A DNA stretch of 52,795 bases from Fibrobacteraceae bacterium (GTDB lineage: Bacteria > Fibrobacterota > Fibrobacteria > Fibrobacterales > Fibrobacteraceae): positions 1 through 52,795 of the forward strand of contig JAGBSH010000018.1 in assembly GCA_017631885.1 (NCBI GenBank), written 5' to 3'. Under the pieces are notes generated by a model that searched no databases, had not been told where the DNA came from, and saw only the letters and a list, made by a program, of their open reading frames with translations. The stretch's first letter is position 1. Each line of letters opens with the position of its first letter. Position numbers and translations under genes: made by a program. Below are positions 12,401-52,795 of this stretch, in pieces.

Positions 12401-12620
12401 CCAGAACCGCCGTAAAGATCAGGATTATGCGATTACTGATCGTATCAGCATTGAACTTTATTCTGAAAGTGAAGTCTTCAAGCAGGCTGTCGCTGAGAAC
12501 GAAGCTTACATCAAGGGCGAAACACAGGCTAACGCTATTGTGTGGGCTGCCGCCGTCGATGGCCTCGAAGCCAACGACGCCGACGGCGAAGCATTCAGCT
12601 TCACGACGGTGAAAGCTTAA
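9429..12620 (+). CDS. ileS: Isoleucyl-tRNA synthetase, IleRS2-like (eukaryote-like) type
   Basis: IleRS charges tRNA-Ile in the cytoplasm. The 1063-residue protein has the class Ia catalytic signatures: P-P-F-A-T-G-L-P-H-Y-G-H (HxGH at residues 57-60) and K-M-S-K-S at residues 608-612. Between them lies the CP1 editing domain, with T-T-T-P-W-T-L-P and G-A-G-A-V-H-I-A-P. The anticodon-binding domain begins near residue 690. The phrase P-P-F-A-T-G-L-P-H-Y-G-H is the form typical of the IleRS2/eukaryote-like clade, in contrast to the P-P-Y-A-N-G-x-x-H-I-G-H form of IleRS1. IleRS2 enzymes are known for low sensitivity to mupirocin. No C-terminal zinc cysteines are seen, which agrees. A GAGG lies 8 bases before the ATG. 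The last 36 bases of this gene are duplicated 6.1 kb downstream. Confidence 0.97.
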   Translation: MALFREVKKEETFPQIEERVLGLWDKDESFKKSLDSRPESEPYTFYDGPPFATGLPHYGHLLAGTIKDIVPRYWTMKGKKVPRGFGWDCHGLPIESLIQNELKLSGVAEIKAFGEDKFNEACRGSVQKYVSEWKKTVRRMGRWVDFDNGYKTMDTNFMESVWWVFKQCFDKGLIYQGYRIQPYSPALATPLSNFETNQGYKDRQDPSLTLIFPLITDNAKFKDTNILVWTTTPWTLPSNFAIAVGEDMDYNLVEQDGKKFWCAATRTAAYFKEANVVDTCKGSELVGLSYEPLFRLSDAYATSEELEKRYKIYAADFVSTEDGAGAVHIAPSFGEEDFQLGASIGLGLFDPLDTEGKFTDKVPMWKGLGAKEADKSIIAHLKEQGRVFKHETFVHSYPHCWRTGVPLLYRALKTWFLKVDAPVTSKDGVTKTLKEWMVENNQTVNWVPSHIRDGRFGKWLENARDWNLSRNRFWGTPIPVWLSDDGDMIAVGSIEELKDLTGVELNDLHKHFVDKLTIEKDGKVYHRTPEVFDCWFESGSMPYASRHYPFENKELVEKSFPADFIAEGLDQTRGWFYTLTVLSNALFQKPAFKNVIVNGIILAEDGTKMSKSKRNYPDPNDLIERTGSDAIRLFMINSAALKAEDLRFSEEGVKGIVKQVMLPLWNAVAFFVSNHNADAAKGQLNWAPGQEVKSDNELDRWMLATLQDLAAKVEVEMKAYRLYNVVPAVIAAVDDLTNWYVRRSRRRFWKSENDGDKNAAYGTMYKVLVDFSKILAPFLPLLAEEIYQILVREVDDKAPVSVHLCEFPSADKSLMDEALVERIAMVRGMVEMGRVIRATNNVKNRMPIANMTVVAHGETEKTVAETMQDLILEELNVREMKFLEDETKLVKLSAKPNFLAIKAKGPEYAKNMKVISSKLASLSVEEIKALQAGETIKFEFGEVGADCLMLNRIVPEGLAVEADNHFTVALDLKITDDLRRACVARELVNRIQNRRKDQDYAITDRISIELYSESEVFKQAVAENEAYIKGETQANAIVWAAAVDGLEANDADGEAFSFTTVKA

Positions 12621-12690
12621 TACTTCTGAGTCATGATTGATTCATAACCTAGCGTGTCATTTTCGCGGCTCCATATAAGGAGCCGCGAAA
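12585..12690 (+). repeat. Left copy of 106-bp direct repeat (ileS 3' end plus hairpin)
   Basis: This stretch covers the last 36 bases of ileS, the stop codon, the spacer and the following inverted repeat. It recurs at 18746-18851 in the same orientation. By eye the two copies differ at one base only (C at 12626, T in the second copy) and diverge after 12690 and 18851. Confidence 0.93.
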
Positions 12691-12691
12691 A
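12660..12691 (+). terminator. Perfect inverted repeat after ileS
   Basis: A 13-base perfect inverted repeat with arms 12660-12672 and 12679-12691 has a 6-base loop. It is G+C-rich in the stem with T at the base of the left arm and A at the base of the right arm, and lies 40 bases after the ileS stop. It has only a weak T tail, so it may be a processing or attenuating hairpin as well as a terminator. It is part of the duplicated 106-bp unit. Confidence 0.6.
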
Positions 12692-12706
12692 TCTCAAAAA
12701 GACTCT

Positions 12707-18745: not shown

Positions 18746-18851
18746 GGCGAAGCATTCAGCTTCACGACGGTGAAAGCTTAATACTTTTGAGTCATGATTG
18801 ATTCATAACCTAGCGTGTCATTTTCGCGGCTCCATATAAGGAGCCGCGAAA
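18746..18851 (+). repeat. Right copy of 106-bp direct repeat (orphan ileS end)
   Basis: This is the second copy of the ileS-end unit. It begins with 36 bases matching the ileS C-terminal codons and stop but is not joined to any synthetase reading frame. It includes the same 13-base inverted repeat. It marks the right boundary of the island. Confidence 0.93.
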
Positions 18852-18857
18852 TTCTCG

Positions 18858-18888
18858 AAAATACCGCAGCTCCGCTGCGGTATTTTCT
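18858..18888 (+). terminator. Rho-independent terminator right of island
   Basis: The perfect stem ATACCGCAGC (18861-18870)/GCTGCGGTAT (18874-18883) has a TCC loop, with A before and T after. It follows the right repeat directly and may be the original ileS terminator before island entry. Confidence 0.8.
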
Positions 18889-35190: not shown

Positions 35191-36057
35191 TTAATCATTG
35201 GGTTGTCTATAAAACCGCCCACTTAAATATTTTGTTTTAACGACGTTTATAAAAGCGTTAGCGTCAATTTTTCTAACAGCATGCATAATGATTCTTGCTT
35301 CTGGTGCAGAAACCACAGAATAAATCATAGAGTGTTCTTTGCCAGCATAGCAACCCTTTCCTTTAAAAACAGTTGCATCATGGCCAGAAAGGTTTTGAAT
35401 GCACCAGTAAACATCTTCTGGTTTATCAGTTATAATAAAAAAGGTTACTTGTTGGTATTTTCTGTAAAGGAACGATAGTGTTTGAGAAGAAGTAAATTGA
35501 AAAATGATAGAATAAAGAGCTTTATCCCAACCAAAAAGAATACCAGCAGAAATAAGAATCACAACGTTTAAAGCGAGAATATAATTCCAGGCATCGGCGC
35601 CGCTTTTTTCTGAAATTAGAATGGCAATAAATTCTGTACCTCCGCTAGAAGCTCCAGCGTAAAGGCAAATGGTTATAGATAAAGCCATTAAAAAGCCACC
35701 AAAAACGGCAGCTAGAAGCATGTCATCGGTCAAGTGAAATGTTGGAAAATAATCCACTAAACCAGAAGAAATTAAAAGCATACCACAAGAAAGTAATGTG
35801 AATTTTTTACCGACGGAAAAATAACACACAATGGCTGGAAATACGTTCAACAAAAGAATGATTAAAGAATAAGGTAATTGTATATCAAAATAGCGTAAGA
35901 AAATTTCTTGAAGTAAAAGAGTTAAACCTGTAAAACCGCCAGGAAATAATTCAGTAGAACGAACAAAAATATTTATAGTTAACGCAAATAAAATAGATGC
36001 TATCGCAAGCAAAAATAATCGAAAAAGAATAGGAAGTTTTGATTGATTGTACGGCAT
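35191..36057 (-). CDS. YitT-family membrane protein
   Basis: The protein has 288 residues from the ATG at 36057; a TTG start at 36108 would add 17 and overlaps the terminator. Five or six hydrophobic segments fill the first 200 residues, with the DUF161 pattern S-T-E-L-F-P-G-G-F-T-G-L-T-L-L and A-G-A-S-S-G-G-T-E-F. The last about 80 residues form the soluble DUF2179 domain (Y-Q-Q-V-T-F-F-I-I-T-D, G-H-D-A-T-V-F-K-G-K-G-C-Y, M-I-Y-S-V-V). Members are widespread inner-membrane proteins whose transported substrate is not firmly known. Single-gene unit, read toward the small peptide gene. Confidence 0.9.
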   Translation of the reverse strand: MPYNQSKLPILFRLFLLAIASILFALTINIFVRSTELFPGGFTGLTLLLQEIFLRYFDIQLPYSLIILLLNVFPAIVCYFSVGKKFTLLSCGMLLISSGLVDYFPTFHLTDDMLLAAVFGGFLMALSITICLYAGASSGGTEFIAILISEKSGADAWNYILALNVVILISAGILFGWDKALYSIIFQFTSSQTLSFLYRKYQQVTFFIITDKPEDVYWCIQNLSGHDATVFKGKGCYAGKEHSMIYSVVSAPEARIIMHAVRKIDANAFINVVKTKYLSGRFYRQPND

Positions 36058-36106
36058 AACTTTATGTATATATAATTTTTGAAAAAGATATGAAAACTTT
36101 TCCCAC

Positions 36107-36148
36107 AAAAAAATCCCTCGATAGTTTACCTATCGAGGGATTTTTTTT
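36107..36148 (-). terminator. Rho-independent terminator, copy 1
   Basis: The stem ATCCCTCGATAG (36113-36124)/CTATCGAGGGAT (36130-36141) has A and T runs on both sides, so it works both ways. It ends the minus-strand lipoprotein/remnant unit before yitT. Its sequence matches the terminator at 37391-37430. Confidence 0.88.
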
Positions 36149-36150
36149 GG

Positions 36151-36273
36151 GGACAATACAGAATTTACAGATTCACGTAAGAATGGAACCCAAGTAACTT
36201 TTATGTCTTGGTGAACCAGAATTGTTCCGTTCCATTGAAAATCATTACCAACATAGAAAATTACACTGCCATT
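36151..36273 (-). pseudogene. 3' remnant of small secreted-protein gene (paralog of 36982-37323)
   Basis: On the minus strand this stretch encodes V-I-F-Y-V-G-N-D-F-Q-W-N-G-T-I followed by V-H-Q-D-I-K-V-T-W-V-P-F-L-R-E-S-V-N, closely matching the C-terminal third of the 113-residue protein at 36982-37323. It has no start, no N-terminal part and no ribosome-binding site. It lies directly after the stop of the lipoprotein gene and before terminator copy 1. Confidence 0.8.
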
Positions 36274-36291
36274 TGTTTAAGGATCAGTTTC

Positions 36292-36969
36292 TCAAAAATT
36301 CAAATTTTCTCTACAATCAAACTCGCCACTTAAAGCACATGATCCATGGACACAGTTATCATTTTCCAAATTAACATCTATCACATAGCAATATTTATCT
36401 GAACATAGACTATCCAACATTTTCCCATCAGACTTATTCCATCCAAACATTGGATAGGTTTCGTTTTTTTTAAATATATCTGCATAATATGTTAATGAAC
36501 CAACGAGGGAAGGGGTTGCAAAATTTATTTCATCAAATATTTCTCCTTCCTTTTGAGAAGGATAAATGCGAAGTGAAACATCTACGGAATCAATATTTAT
36601 TCCATGACAAAATTCATCAATTCGACAAGAAGTTATAAAATTTTGTACTATTAATCCCGAATCGCATTGGTTGATACCATTTAGATAATTATATTCTTCT
36701 AAGCAATAATGCCATTTTTCCCCATAATCAGAATAACTATTACTACATTCTATACAAAGAGAATGATTGTAAACGTATCCTAATTTTTCATTTGTAAAGT
36801 CATTGCAAACACGATTCCCATTCACAAAAAATTGTACACTATCAAAAGAATTAGTAGTTCCATAAGTAATCCATAAATCTCGTGCATATTTATAACATTC
36901 ACATTCTTCCCCACATTTACAAGCCACAAAAGAAATAAAAAATAAAGCTAATAAATTCAATTTACGCAT
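36292..36969 (-). CDS. Cysteine-rich lipoprotein, unknown family
   Basis: This 225-residue protein has a lipoprotein signal peptide: basic M-R-K-L-N, a hydrophobic core L-L-A-L-F-F-I-S-F-V, and a lipobox ending in C just before K-C-G-E-E-C-E-C. The mature part has about fifteen cysteines in C-x2-C, C-x-C and wider spacings, acidic and aromatic residues, and no recognised domain. It would be anchored in the outer or inner membrane and held by disulfides. The preferred ATG at 36969 has AAAGGAG upstream; the TTG at 36975 is not needed. It lies 12 bases after the 113-residue secreted protein gene and looks inserted between that gene and a duplicated copy of its 3' end. Confidence 0.78.
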   Translation of the reverse strand: MRKLNLLALFFISFVACKCGEECECYKYARDLWITYGTTNSFDSVQFFVNGNRVCNDFTNEKLGYVYNHSLCIECSNSYSDYGEKWHYCLEEYNYLNGINQCDSGLIVQNFITSCRIDEFCHGINIDSVDVSLRIYPSQKEGEIFDEINFATPSLVGSLTYYADIFKKNETYPMFGWNKSDGKMLDSLCSDKYCYVIDVNLENDNCVHGSCALSGEFDCRENLNF

Positions 36970-36981
36970 ACTCAACTCCTT

Positions 36982-37323
36982 TTAGTTATACACCCCAGCA
37001 ATCACCGCATTTACCGTTTCACGTAAAAATGGCGCCCAAGTAACTTTTGTGTCTTGATGAACCTGAATTGTTCCGTTCCATTGGAAATCATTACCAACAT
37101 AGAAAATTACACTTGAACCAGAATTAAAATCTAAATCCCAATTAAAAGTATTTTCAAAGAAGTTATCGTAAGCTTGTTTTGTAGAATTTTCGTGTGGGGA
37201 ATGTTCTATTATACTACCTAAAATTTTATTTTGTGAAAACTGCTCGTCAAGAGTAGAAATTGTAATAGCATTGGTGACAGAAAATAGTGAGAACAAAAGA
37301 AATAGAAGAAAAACTTTATGCAT
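36982..37323 (-). CDS. Small secreted protein, paralogous family member A (113 aa)
   Basis: The protein has 113 residues with a signal peptide (H2-K3, hydrophobic V-F-L-L-F-L-L-F-S-L-F, cleavage likely after N-A). The mature part reads I-T-I-S-T-L-D-E-Q-F-S-Q-N-K-I-L-G-S-I-I-E, then a short acidic-polar stretch, W-D-L-D-F-N-S-G-S-S and V-I-F-Y-V-G-N-D-F-Q-W-N. The family is unknown to me. A second, shorter copy is at 40013-40291 and a 3' fragment at 36151-36273, so the family is multi-copy around glgP. Function unknown; secretion is inferred from the signal peptide. Confidence 0.75.
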   Translation of the reverse strand: MHKVFLLFLLFSLFSVTNAITISTLDEQFSQNKILGSIIEHSPHENSTKQAYDNFFENTFNWDLDFNSGSSVIFYVGNDFQWNGTIQVHQDTKVTWAPFLRETVNAVIAGVYN

Positions 37324-37390
37324 GGTTTAATCCTATATATTTCTTACAATAAATAGAAATATATAAAATTATGTTTTTTGTTTTTTTCCA

Positions 37391-37430
37391 CAAAAAAATC
37401 CCTCGATAGTTCAACTATCGAGGGTTTCTT
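37391..37430 (-). terminator. Rho-independent terminator, copy 2 (after glgP)
   Basis: The stem CCCTCGATAGT (37400-37410)/ACTATCGAGGG (37414-37424) is followed on the minus strand by a T run. It ends glgP transcripts. About 24 bases, including flanking CCACAAAAAAA, are the same as in copy 1 at 36103-36126. Confidence 0.88.
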
Positions 37431-37449: not shown

Positions 37450-39924
37450 TTAAAGCTTAATTTCGCAAGGCTTTGCATTCCAAATTTCTTCAGCGTATTC
37501 TTTAATGGTTCTGTCAGAGCTGAACTTGCCCATGCGAGCCACGTTGAGAATAGCTTTTTTAGCCCAAGTCTTTGTATCGAGATATTCCTTAGCGACTTTT
37601 TCATGACATTCTACATAGCTACGGAAATCGGCTAAGAGCATGTATGGGTCATTGGAAAGGAGTTTATCTGCAATGTGTTTAAAGAGATCTGGGCGGTCTG
37701 GGCTAAAGAATCCGCTGTGAATAAGGTCAATTACGCGGCGGAGATCGTCATCTTGTTCATAGAAATCGCGTGGGCGATAACCTTTAGCAAGAGTAGCCTG
37801 AACTTCTTCTACAGTTAAGCCGAAAATAAAGATGTTGTCGTCGCCGACTTCTTCTTTCATTTCAACGTTAGCACCATCAAGAGTACCAATAGTCAAAGCG
37901 CCATTCAAAGCAAACTTCATGTTACCAGTTCCAGAGGCTTCTGTACCAGCTGTAGAAATTTGTTCAGAAAGGTCAGCTGCTGGGATAATCTTTTCAGCAA
38001 AAGAAACGCGGTAGTTTTCAAGGAATACAAGAGCGAGTTTGCCTTTACAATCTGGGTCAGAATTAACCACAGCGCCAACAGCATTAGCTAAGCGAATGAT
38101 TTGTTTTGCCATCCAATAACCTGGAGCAGATTTACCACCAATAAAGATTGTACGTGGCAAAATTTCACGACCTTCTTTAATTTGGATGTAAAGATGAATG
38201 GCGTGAAGGACATTCAAAAGCTGGCGTTTGTATTCGTGAATGCGCTTTACTTGAACGTCGAACAAGGTGTTTATATCAATATCTACACCTTGAGTTTCTT
38301 TCAAGTATTTAGCAAGACGTTTCTTGTTCTGGAGTTTAACATCCATAAAGGCTTTCTGGAATTTAGCATCATCAGCGAACTTTTCAAGTTTGCGTAAATC
38401 GTCTAAATCCTTAACCCAAGAATCGCCAATCTTAGAAATTACAAGGTCAGAAAGAGCAGGGTTTGCTTTACGAACCCAACGACGTGGTGTTACACCATTT
38501 GTCTTGTTGTTGAACTTTTCTGGCCAGAGTTCATAGAAATCTTTAAAGAGGAAAGATTTCAAAAGTTCGCTGTGGAGTGCAGCTACACCATTGACAGCGA
38601 AGGAGCCAACAATGGAAAGGAATGCCATGCGAACCATTTTTTCGTTGCCTTCTTCAATAATAGACATACGAGTCAAGCGACGAACATCACCAGGCCATTT
38701 CATAGAAACAAGGCGCAAGAAACGAGCGTTGATTTCATAAATAATTTGGAGGTGACGTGGTAATAAACGTTCAAAGAGAGATACTGGCCACTTTTCAAGA
38801 GCTTCTGGCATCAAGGTGTGGTTTGTATAAGCGAAAGTCTTTGTAACAATATCCCAAGCTTCGTCCCAACCCAAGTCTTCTAAGTCAACAAGAATACGCA
38901 TCATTTCAGCAATAGCAATGGCTGGGTGTGTATCGTTCAACTGAATAGCTACTTTTTCTGGGAGAACTTTCCAATCGTTACCATGTAACTTCTTAAAGCG
39001 GTTGATAATGTCTTGTAAAGAAGCAGAGCAAAGGAAGTATTGTTGTTTCAAGCGAAGTTCTTTACCATTCATAGAAGAATCGTTCGGGTAGAGAACTTTA
39101 GAAATAGCTTCAGATAATTCCATATCTTGAACAGCAGCAATGTAATCGCCGTTGTTAAAGTAAGCGAGTCCGAAATCATCTGTGCTCTTTGCACTCCACA
39201 AGCGCAAGTTGTTTACAGTGTTGTTCTTGTAACCAGGAATTGGGGTGTCATAAGGCAATGCAAGAACGTAATCTTTCGTATCCCAGCGGTTGCGGAGTTT
39301 TCCGTTTTCATCTTGCCAAGAAACGACATAACCATAGAAAGGCACGCGAAGAGCATTAGCTGGGCGAGCGATTTCCCATGGGTTTGGCAAGCGCAACCAG
39401 TTATCTGGGTGTTCTTCTTGTTCGCCATTTACAATTTTTTGGTGGAACATGCCGTATTCATAACGGATACCCATACCAGTAGCAGGGAGTTCAAGTGTTG
39501 CCATGGAATCTAAGAAGCAAGCTGCCAAACGACCAAGACCGCCGTTACCAAGGCCAGCATCTACTTCTTCTTCGCGAAGTTCTTCAAGACTCATGCCGAG
39601 AGCGTCAAGAGCTTCTGCTACAGCGCTTTCAACATCAAGGTTTAAAACGGAGTTGCCGAGGGTACGGCCAATGAGGAATTCCAAAGAAAGATAATAGACG
39701 CGTTTTACGTCTTTTTCATAATAAGTTTCCTGAGTTTTAATCCAGCGATCAATCAAACGATCGCGAACGGCGTAAGCCACAGCAAGGAACTTTTCGTGGT
39801 CAGTAACGGTTACATTGTTACGGGCCAAAGTATGATGAATGTGATCTGTAAAAGCCTGTTTAAAAGCATCTACAGAATTTTCAAGTATTGGTGCTTCAAC
39901 GGCTTTTGCACTTTTCTTTGCCAT
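37450..39924 (-). CDS. glgP: Glycogen/starch/alpha-glucan phosphorylase
   Basis: This enzyme releases glucose-1-phosphate from glycogen using phosphate and pyridoxal phosphate. The 824-residue length is standard. Signatures include Y-Y-L-S-L-E-F-L-I-G-R-T-L, G-L-G-N-G-G-L-G-R-L-A-A-C-F-L-D-S in the N-terminal half, and the PLP-lysine segment E-A-S-G-T-G-N-M-K-F-A-L-N-G near residue 670, followed by T-I-G-T-L-D-G-A-N-V-E. The ATG at 39924 has GAGGAT upstream; the longer frame from 39939 is not supported. Glycogen storage is prominent in Fibrobacter, so the gene suits that lifestyle. No other glg gene is near, and it is flanked by members of the small secreted family. Confidence 0.96.
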   Translation of the reverse strand: MAKKSAKAVEAPILENSVDAFKQAFTDHIHHTLARNNVTVTDHEKFLAVAYAVRDRLIDRWIKTQETYYEKDVKRVYYLSLEFLIGRTLGNSVLNLDVESAVAEALDALGMSLEELREEEVDAGLGNGGLGRLAACFLDSMATLELPATGMGIRYEYGMFHQKIVNGEQEEHPDNWLRLPNPWEIARPANALRVPFYGYVVSWQDENGKLRNRWDTKDYVLALPYDTPIPGYKNNTVNNLRLWSAKSTDDFGLAYFNNGDYIAAVQDMELSEAISKVLYPNDSSMNGKELRLKQQYFLCSASLQDIINRFKKLHGNDWKVLPEKVAIQLNDTHPAIAIAEMMRILVDLEDLGWDEAWDIVTKTFAYTNHTLMPEALEKWPVSLFERLLPRHLQIIYEINARFLRLVSMKWPGDVRRLTRMSIIEEGNEKMVRMAFLSIVGSFAVNGVAALHSELLKSFLFKDFYELWPEKFNNKTNGVTPRRWVRKANPALSDLVISKIGDSWVKDLDDLRKLEKFADDAKFQKAFMDVKLQNKKRLAKYLKETQGVDIDINTLFDVQVKRIHEYKRQLLNVLHAIHLYIQIKEGREILPRTIFIGGKSAPGYWMAKQIIRLANAVGAVVNSDPDCKGKLALVFLENYRVSFAEKIIPAADLSEQISTAGTEASGTGNMKFALNGALTIGTLDGANVEMKEEVGDDNIFIFGLTVEEVQATLAKGYRPRDFYEQDDDLRRVIDLIHSGFFSPDRPDLFKHIADKLLSNDPYMLLADFRSYVECHEKVAKEYLDTKTWAKKAILNVARMGKFSSDRTIKEYAEEIWNAKPCEIKL

Positions 39925-40012
39925 ATCCTCAATCCTCAAATAAAAAGTTTTTTACAAAGATAGTAATTCTCCATGAAATTGCCATCTTATAAATGTTTAT
40001 TTTAGTGCGTTT

Positions 40013-40291
40013 CTAAGCCACAATCACAGTAACGATAGTTCCATTTCTTTGGAAATCATTACCAACATAGAAAATCACACTTGAACCAGAATTAAAATCT
40101 AAATCCCAATCAAAAGTATTTTCAAAGAAATTATCGTAAGCTTGTTTTGTAGAATTTTCGTGTGTGGAATGTTCTATTATACGACTTAAAATTTTATTTT
40201 GGGAAAATTGTTCGTCGAGAATGGAAATCGTAATGGCGTTGGAGAAAATCGTTGATGCAAACAAAATACACAACAAAATGAATTTTTTCAT
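40013..40291 (-). CDS. Small secreted protein, family member B (shortened C-terminus)
   Basis: A 92-residue protein with a signal peptide (K2-K3, F-I-L-L-C-I-L-F-A-S-T-I-F-S, cleavage after N-A). From I-T-I-S on it is about 90 percent like member A, including D-E-Q-F-S-Q-N-K-I-L and V-I-F-Y-V-G-N-D-F-Q, but the end R-N-G-T-I-V-T-V-I-V-A replaces the last 25-30 residues of member A, so it is truncated or rearranged at its 3' end. GGAG precedes the ATG at 40291. It may be in decay. It reads toward glgP's upstream side on the minus strand, not overlapping it. Confidence 0.6.
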   Translation of the reverse strand: MKKFILLCILFASTIFSNAITISILDEQFSQNKILSRIIEHSTHENSTKQAYDNFFENTFDWDLDFNSGSSVIFYVGNDFQRNGTIVTVIVA

Positions 40292-40329
40292 GGTTTTCTC
40301 CAAGGGGGCGTGGTGGAAGCAATCTCAAT

Positions 40330-40540
40330 GCAAGTAACACTTGTTTTTGGATTACTTCGCTACGCTCGTAATGACAAAAAACAAGATCGCCACACTACGT
40401 TCGCGACGACAATTCACACTACGTTCGCGATGACTAGCCGCAACTTGCTCGCAGTTTTTACATGAGGTTCTTGTCATTTGCAAACAGATGGCCTGCGTCG
40501 TCTTTAAAAAGTCTCCTCGCCATGATAATTCTCATTTGCA
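40330..40540. repeat. Dispersed intergenic repeat, copy A
   Basis: No gene is seen here. The stretch holds short motifs that recur elsewhere in the window: GGATTACTTCGCTACGCTCG with TAATGACAAAAAACAAGA (about 40351-40389; inverted at 52741-52780), CACACTACGTTCGCGA (twice here; similar at 49020), and a core with CAGATGGCC and ACTCCTCGCC-like ends (40484-40525; also 49053-49092 and inverted at 52711-52748). The repeats are imperfect, as expected for a small non-coding family. Confidence 0.7.
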
Positions 40541-52599: not shown

Positions 52600-52795
52600 T
52601 TGTGAAAAGTATGGACGGCTTTATGTTTGGGCCGCTGCCATGTGTAAGCAGGCTGCCAACATTTCCTCTGCCAGGGCAGTACGGATTGTCGTAGCGAAAC
52701 AGTACGGCTTGTCATGGCGAGGAGTCTTTTAAGACGCGCGGCCATCTTGTTTTTTGTCATTACGAGCGTAGCGAAGTAATCCAAAACAAGTTTTG
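52600..52795. repeat. Dispersed intergenic repeat, copy C (inverted)
   Basis: Holds, in opposite orientation to copy A, GTCATGGCGAGGAGTC with AAGACGCGCGGCCATC (52711-52745) and TCATTACGAGCGTAGCGAAG with TAATCCAAAACAAG (52757-52790). Also GTACGGATTGTCGTAGCGAA. No gene is seen to the window end. Confidence 0.7.

What the first reader, a model, noticed from the sequence alone, without database searches (positions are those of the whole stretch)
36107..37430. Small-scale repeat of the island architecture: a gene end duplicated around an inserted lipoprotein gene
Seen: the 3' third of the 113-aa secreted gene (36982-37323) is present again at 36151-36273, on the other side of the lipoprotein gene 36292-36969, and near-identical terminators (36107-36148, 37391-37430) flank the whole. 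This is the same layout as at ileS: cargo bracketed by a duplicated 3' gene end. It hints at a recurring insertion process in this genome that uses gene ends.
Basis: partly seen in the sequence, partly recalled or inferred. Interest (0 to 1): 0.58.

Follow-up and report, generated by a model that had tools for sequence, protein, structure and literature searches.

The report
Shuffling lipoprotein cassettes between gene-end repeats
The repeated gene end is real, but it is a small decayed offshoot of a family-wide arrangement in Fibrobacter relatives, in which copies of the end of a secreted-protease gene separate a changing series of small surface-protein genes, much like the toxin-and-immunity arrays of other bacteria.

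Summary
The layout is confirmed: 36158-36267 repeats 37004-37113 at 90%, far above chance, around a lipoprotein gene, with terminator-like hairpins outside. The reading changes. The 113-aa gene is an internally deleted, mosaic copy of a large secreted protein (CBM3-like, papain-like peptidase, TSP3, DUF7305). The orphan end was not copied from it: the orphan extends into full-length sequence that the mini-gene lacks. Elsewhere in this genome a full-length gene heads an array: lipoprotein, orphan end, lipoprotein, orphan end (four lipoproteins, four orphan ends). In a same-genus genome the window's site (yitT on one side, glgP on the other) instead holds the full-length gene and different cassettes, pointing the other way. 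Arrays with 755-1309 bp spacing occur in 10 Fibrobacteraceae genomes of 6 genera, one a single-contig genome (7 ends, 6 genes). Between cassettes the upstream 90 bp and signal peptide are conserved; the rest can be unrelated. Best explanation: tandem duplication plus homologous recombination between copies of the gene end, building and reshuffling a series of partner genes, as in CDI/Rhs orphan arrays. Partner function (protection from the protease?) is inferred only. The ileS repeat is real but unrelated. New variant of a known kind.

The parts
36982..37323 (-). mini-gene (113 aa): signal peptide plus fragments of a large anchor protein, an internally deleted mosaic copy
   Evidence: N segment 68-75% to relatives, middle 98% to full-length genes, last part 97% to array orphan ends
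36292..36969 (-). lipoprotein gene (lipoW), partner cassette
   Evidence: 55-57% to lipoB and lipoD of the C24 array; partner family found in 32 of 111 Fibrobacteraceae genomes
36151..36291 (-). orphan 3' end of the anchor gene, short (fused) form
   Evidence: 90-93% to orphans 2, 3 and 4 of the C24 array; 92% to the orphan beside glgP in G002
36107..36148 (.). terminator-like hairpin T2 on the yitT side
37391..37430 (.). terminator-like hairpin T1 on the glgP side
40013..40303 (-). second mini-gene copy, upstream of glgP, last third missing
   Evidence: its counterpart in G002 is further deleted between two 12-bp repeats
37450..39939 (-). flanking gene glgP (name recalled from its sequence), landmark for synteny
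35191..36108 (-). flanking gene, YitT-like (name recalled from its sequence), landmark for synteny

Best explanation
The locus is a decayed satellite of a lipoprotein-cassette array. In this family a large secreted protein gene (the anchor: signal peptide, CBM3-like domain, papain-like peptidase domain, TSP3 repeats, DUF7305 end) is followed directly by a small secreted or lipoprotein partner gene. The unit 'anchor 3' end + partner' was tandemly duplicated. Homologous recombination between the 3'-end copies, and between the conserved upstream and signal-peptide sequences, then added, lost, reordered and moved partner cassettes, while internal deletions at short repeats shrank spare anchor copies to mini-genes. 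Shown: the arrays, the conserved flanks with unrelated cores, different cassette content and orientation at one site in two genomes, mosaic copies. Inferred: that RecA-type recombination does it, and that partners are kept because variety pays. Most likely role, inferred only (about 0.35): the partner protects the cell surface from the anchor's protease or from relatives' proteases, as an inhibitor or immunity protein.
For: Array in the same genome (C24): anchor, lipoA, orphan1, lipoB, orphan2, lipoC, orphan3, lipoD, orphan4. lipoA against lipoW: 89% in the 90 bp upstream, 73% in the first 60 bp, 31% in the rest, below a shuffled pair at 40%. G002: YitT-like gene beside a full-length anchor followed by lipoB, and glgP followed by converging orphan, lipoC, orphan, lipoA; the lipoA-lipoC junction has the head of orphan1 and the tail of orphan2. 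Single-contig genome G105: 7 ends, 6 partners of 250-264 aa, 214-bp spacers 89-98% identical, windowed partner identity 29-69% over most of the first 200 alignment columns and 91-99% at the end, mosaic partners. 28 of 34 full-length ends and 39 of 50 orphan segments are followed by a 100-320 aa ORF with a hydrophobic start, against 25 of 351 other ORFs.
Against: G002 is a 71%-complete MAG whose contigs end inside the array, so joining C22 and C17 into one array is inference from synteny. Seven partner genes in G022 lie in tandem with no anchor ends, so the end is not needed for amplification. Only 20 of 40 orphan ends have their nearest relative in the same genome; the rest are inherited or old. 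No recombination was observed directly. The protease assignment is weak (best Pfam E 0.00018; model pLDDT 44, with no useful fold match). The 509-aa anchor lacks the protease yet still has a partner, which counts against a simple inhibitor role.
Confidence: 0.72

Rival explanations
1. One reading: a general insertion process in this genome duplicates the 3' ends of genes around cargo, at ileS and here alike.
For: Both places have a duplicated gene end around other genes.
Against: At ileS a housekeeping-gene end at 97% brackets unrelated genes; here the end belongs to the family of the array itself, and orphan ends sit beside their own partner type in many genomes. The two repeats were reported as separate families.
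Confidence: 0.07
2. Plain tandem duplication and decay: the partner and the gene end were duplicated by unequal crossing over, paralogues drifted, and nothing is shuffled or selected.
For: Mini-genes show deletions between short repeats (12 bp in G002); orphan4 and others are truncated; the glgP-upstream copies have no partner.
Against: Unrelated cores behind near-identical flanks, mosaic partners in G105 and different cassettes and orientation at the same site in G000 and G002 need exchange, not drift alone.
Confidence: 0.17
3. The retained gene end works as a translated leader: mini-genes keep a signal peptide and an open frame into the partner's ribosome-binding site, so selection keeps them for partner expression.
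For: Mini-genes joining the 5' and 3' ends occur in G000, in G105 spacers and in F. intestinalis; many partners start within a few bases of the end.
Against: Several orphan ends have no evident start codon or carry stops in the matched stretch; partner arrays without any end exist; the low omega between the two window mini-genes (0.11) comes mostly from their diverged first 96 nt.
Confidence: 0.12

Closest known systems
Orphan cdiA-CT/cdiI and rhs-CT/rhsI arrays (PMC4927057, passages read)
   Same: A large secreted protein gene is trailed by a tandem series of displaced 3' ends, each with a small gene, keeping homology to the upstream gene that would allow recombination.
   Different: Here the repeated end is the conserved part and the variable part is the partner; no toxin tip, and I saw no transposase or integrase among the array ORFs listed (judged by eye, not by a family search).
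Papain-like protease with an adjacent inhibitor: SpeB-Spi, staphopain-staphostatin, Bacteroides Bfp-Bfi (PMC2873492, passages read)
   Same: Secreted clan-CA-like protease gene followed closely by a small gene whose product may protect the producer.
   Different: Partners here are about 200-290 aa, variable and in arrays; no inhibitor similarity was found.
Variable surface-lipoprotein arrays of Borrelia and Mycoplasma (recalled)
   Same: Conserved 5' and signal region, variable body, gene series open to recombination.
   Different: Spacer repeats come from another gene's end; no expression-site switching shown.

Membership tests
CDI/Rhs orphan toxin-immunity arrays | Tandem displaced 3' ends downstream of a full-length secreted-protein gene, each with a small downstream gene | tested here: met
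   (in G105 the leading anchor copy is itself truncated)
CDI/Rhs orphan toxin-immunity arrays | Variable C-terminal toxin domain in each displaced end | tested here: not met
   ends are the conserved DUF7305-type tail
CDI/Rhs orphan toxin-immunity arrays | Small gene is a cognate immunity gene | not testable with these tools
   no assay; family libraries give no assignment
Integrative element at a gene 3' end (as suggested for ileS) | Near-identical direct repeats of the target gene end on both sides | tested here: not met
   the repeat is a family copy at 90% with 5' sequence that the 113-aa gene lacks
Integrative element at a gene 3' end (as suggested for ileS) | Integrase or transposase in the cargo | tested here: not met
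   only one lipoprotein gene lies between the copies
Protease-inhibitor pair (SpeB-Spi type) | Papain-like catalytic domain with Cys and His | tested here: inconclusive
   invariant C33, H144 and N168 in 4 of 4 aligned sequences; weak C39_2, C70 and C10 matches
Protease-inhibitor pair (SpeB-Spi type) | Partner inhibits the protease | not testable with these tools
   needs protein assays

The most novel reading that the evidence does not exclude
Fibrobacteraceae carry a family-wide recombinational cassette system in which the end of a cellulose-binding protease gene is portable homology: it lets partner (immunity-like) lipoprotein genes be stacked, reordered and moved between chromosomal sites, giving each lineage its own partner repertoire.
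Probability: 0.35. Interest if true: 0.72.

Novelty: new variant of a known kind. Interest (0 to 1): 0.5.

Why it matters
It would show how a group of fibre-degrading gut bacteria diversifies surface proteins without mobile-element enzymes, and would extend the CDI/Rhs orphan-array idea to a case where the repeated end is constant and the neighbour varies. It also points to a CBM3-like secreted protein in a lineage whose model species has cellulases without CBM1, CBM2 or CBM3 (PMC3079729, abstract and passages). A cultured relative (F. intestinalis ATCC 43854, L088) holds a mini-gene, so parts are testable.

Tried and rejected
Pfam, NCBIfam and PADLOC gave no convincing assignment for the partners. 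AlphaFold of lipoW (pLDDT 63, all beta) and of the peptidase domain (pLDDT 44) gave no useful fold match. The low omega between the two window mini-genes was first taken as selection on the mini-gene, then dropped: most differences lie in a separately diverged first segment. A clean empty site for the C24 array was sought in G002: its dnaQ-like gene lies beside another gene with no anchor, but identity there is only 73%, so this is weak. The 94-bp direct repeat around the C24 array may be insertion repeats or just the anchor's upstream region, since a copy also precedes another anchor-like gene in G002; left open. Searches for papers on such arrays in Fibrobacter showed none in the listings; subscription papers are not held.

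Full report
Observation. The repeat is real: 110 nt at 90% (36158-36267 / 37004-37113), 99 matches against a best of 52 in 200 shuffles. The lipoprotein gene (36292-36969) and the 113-aa gene (36982-37323) are where stated. The two hairpin regions are 90% alike over 48 nt and found nowhere else in the genome.

What the 113-aa gene is. A search of this genome with it gives 17 matches on three contigs: a 1184-aa protein on C24, a 509-aa one on C29, and many short ends. The 113-aa gene joins the signal peptide to pieces of the middle and end of the large protein. It is a mosaic: first 96 nt 68-75% to its relatives, middle 98% to the C24 and G002 full-length genes, last 87 nt 97% to array orphan ends 2 and 3 but 87% to the C24 full-length gene. 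A second copy lies at 40013-40303; its counterpart in G002 lost more between two 12-bp repeats.

What the orphan end is. It shares with C24 orphans 2, 3 and 4 a fusion (GGAACAATT joined to CTGGTTCA; CAGGTTCA in the 113-aa gene) absent from the full-length genes and carries 5' sequence that the 113-aa gene lacks. So it was not copied from its neighbour.

The parent array. On C24 the 1184-aa gene is followed by four lipoprotein genes and four orphan ends in alternation. lipoB and lipoD are 87% alike, lipoW is 55-57% to both, and lipoA and lipoC have other bodies. Upstream 90 bp of A, B, D and W average 93%, the first 60 bp 81%; A against W falls to 31% in the rest. With lipoC and lipoE added the upstream mean is 73% (minimum 39%), since lipoC has another leader. 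A 94-bp direct repeat (95%) brackets the C24 array and is otherwise only partly present.

Comparison with a relative. G002 is of the same genus; its contig C22 has the length of JAGAKE010000018.1, an MAG named Fibrobacteraceae bacterium RGIG8517. The window's flanks are 96% identical there. On the YitT-like side G002 has a full-length anchor, 93.5% to the C24 gene over 3615 bp, then lipoB. On the glgP side it has orphan, lipoC and orphan, then the end of lipoA, converging on glgP. The same site thus holds different cassettes in the opposite orientation. Each contig shows its own part; that they form one array is inferred.

Other genomes. In 68 loci chosen from search hits (not a random sample), a profile of the end found 82 ends: 34 in ORFs with the N-terminal domain, 48 without (matches above E 0.01 were dropped and pieces within 250 bp merged). 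Of the 34, 28 are followed closely by a 100-320 aa ORF, one more runs off its contig, two have another kind of ORF and three none; of the 48, 40 are followed so, three have another kind and five none. With a hydrophobic start required, and counted by ORF segment: 28 of 34 and 39 of 50, against 25 of 351 control ORFs. Twelve locus-strand groups in 10 genomes (G000, G002, G010, G021, G040, G079, G100, G105, G107, G110) have two or more ends 755-1309 bp apart. In the single-contig genome G105, seven ends separate six partners; spacers of 214 bp are 89-98% identical, partner bodies vary and are mosaic, and the last 50 or so residues are 91-99% identical. Against a necessary role of the end: in ten loci fetched by partner matches no end was found, and one (G022) has seven partner genes in tandem. 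The partner family is in 32 of 111 Fibrobacteraceae genomes. Nearest relatives of orphan ends lie in the same genome for 20 of 40.

Domains. The profile of nine anchors (A1) matches CBM3 chains in the PDB (2l8a, E 6e-6; 3zqx, 8e-5; that these are family 3 modules is recalled) and a region of Bap proteins; DUF7305 in 8 of 9, TSP3 in 7 of 9, Peptidase_C39_2 in 3 of 9. The middle domain keeps Cys, His and Asn in 4 of 4 rows and weakly matches C39_2, C70 and C10 families. Both structure models are too uncertain to name a fold.

Mechanism. Shown: repeated ends, conserved flanks with variable cores, changed content at one site, mosaic copies. Inferred: duplication followed by homologous recombination, and a benefit from partner variety. 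CDI/Rhs orphan arrays are the nearest known case; protease-inhibitor pairs are the nearest functional analogy. The 509-aa anchor, which lacks the protease yet has a partner, speaks against a pure inhibitor role.

Verdict. Layout confirmed, explanation changed: an offshoot of a cassette array, not a general gene-end insertion process. The ileS repeat is real but separate.

Noticed in passing
window 12585-12703 and 18746-18864: End of ileS repeated at 97% over 119 bp around about 6 kb with a PIN-like ORF and other defence-like ORFs (names judged by eye); looks like an integrated island.
   Followed up: partly
L018 12637-12543 and 5671-5578 (G000 C24): 94-bp direct repeat (95%) around the anchor array; a copy also precedes another anchor-like gene at the start of G002 contig C10 (L101), whose signal peptide is alike but whose mature part differs.
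   Followed up: partly
L148 6065-10518 (G022): Seven tandem lipoprotein genes with a near-constant signal peptide, similar ends and variable middles, and no anchor ends.
   Followed up: partly
L146/L147 (G105): Partner proteins end in a near-identical 50-residue C-terminus that resembles a type IX secretion sorting domain (recalled resemblance, not tested).
   Followed up: no
window about 40330-40370 and 52740-52786: Short dispersed repeat (CATTACGAGCGTAGCGAAGTAATCC) next to the second mini-gene and near the end of the contig.
   Followed up: no
anchor N-terminal domain (L018 8935-12489, L019 4742-6271): CBM3-like domain in a lineage whose model species has no CBM3 in its cellulases.
   Followed up: partly
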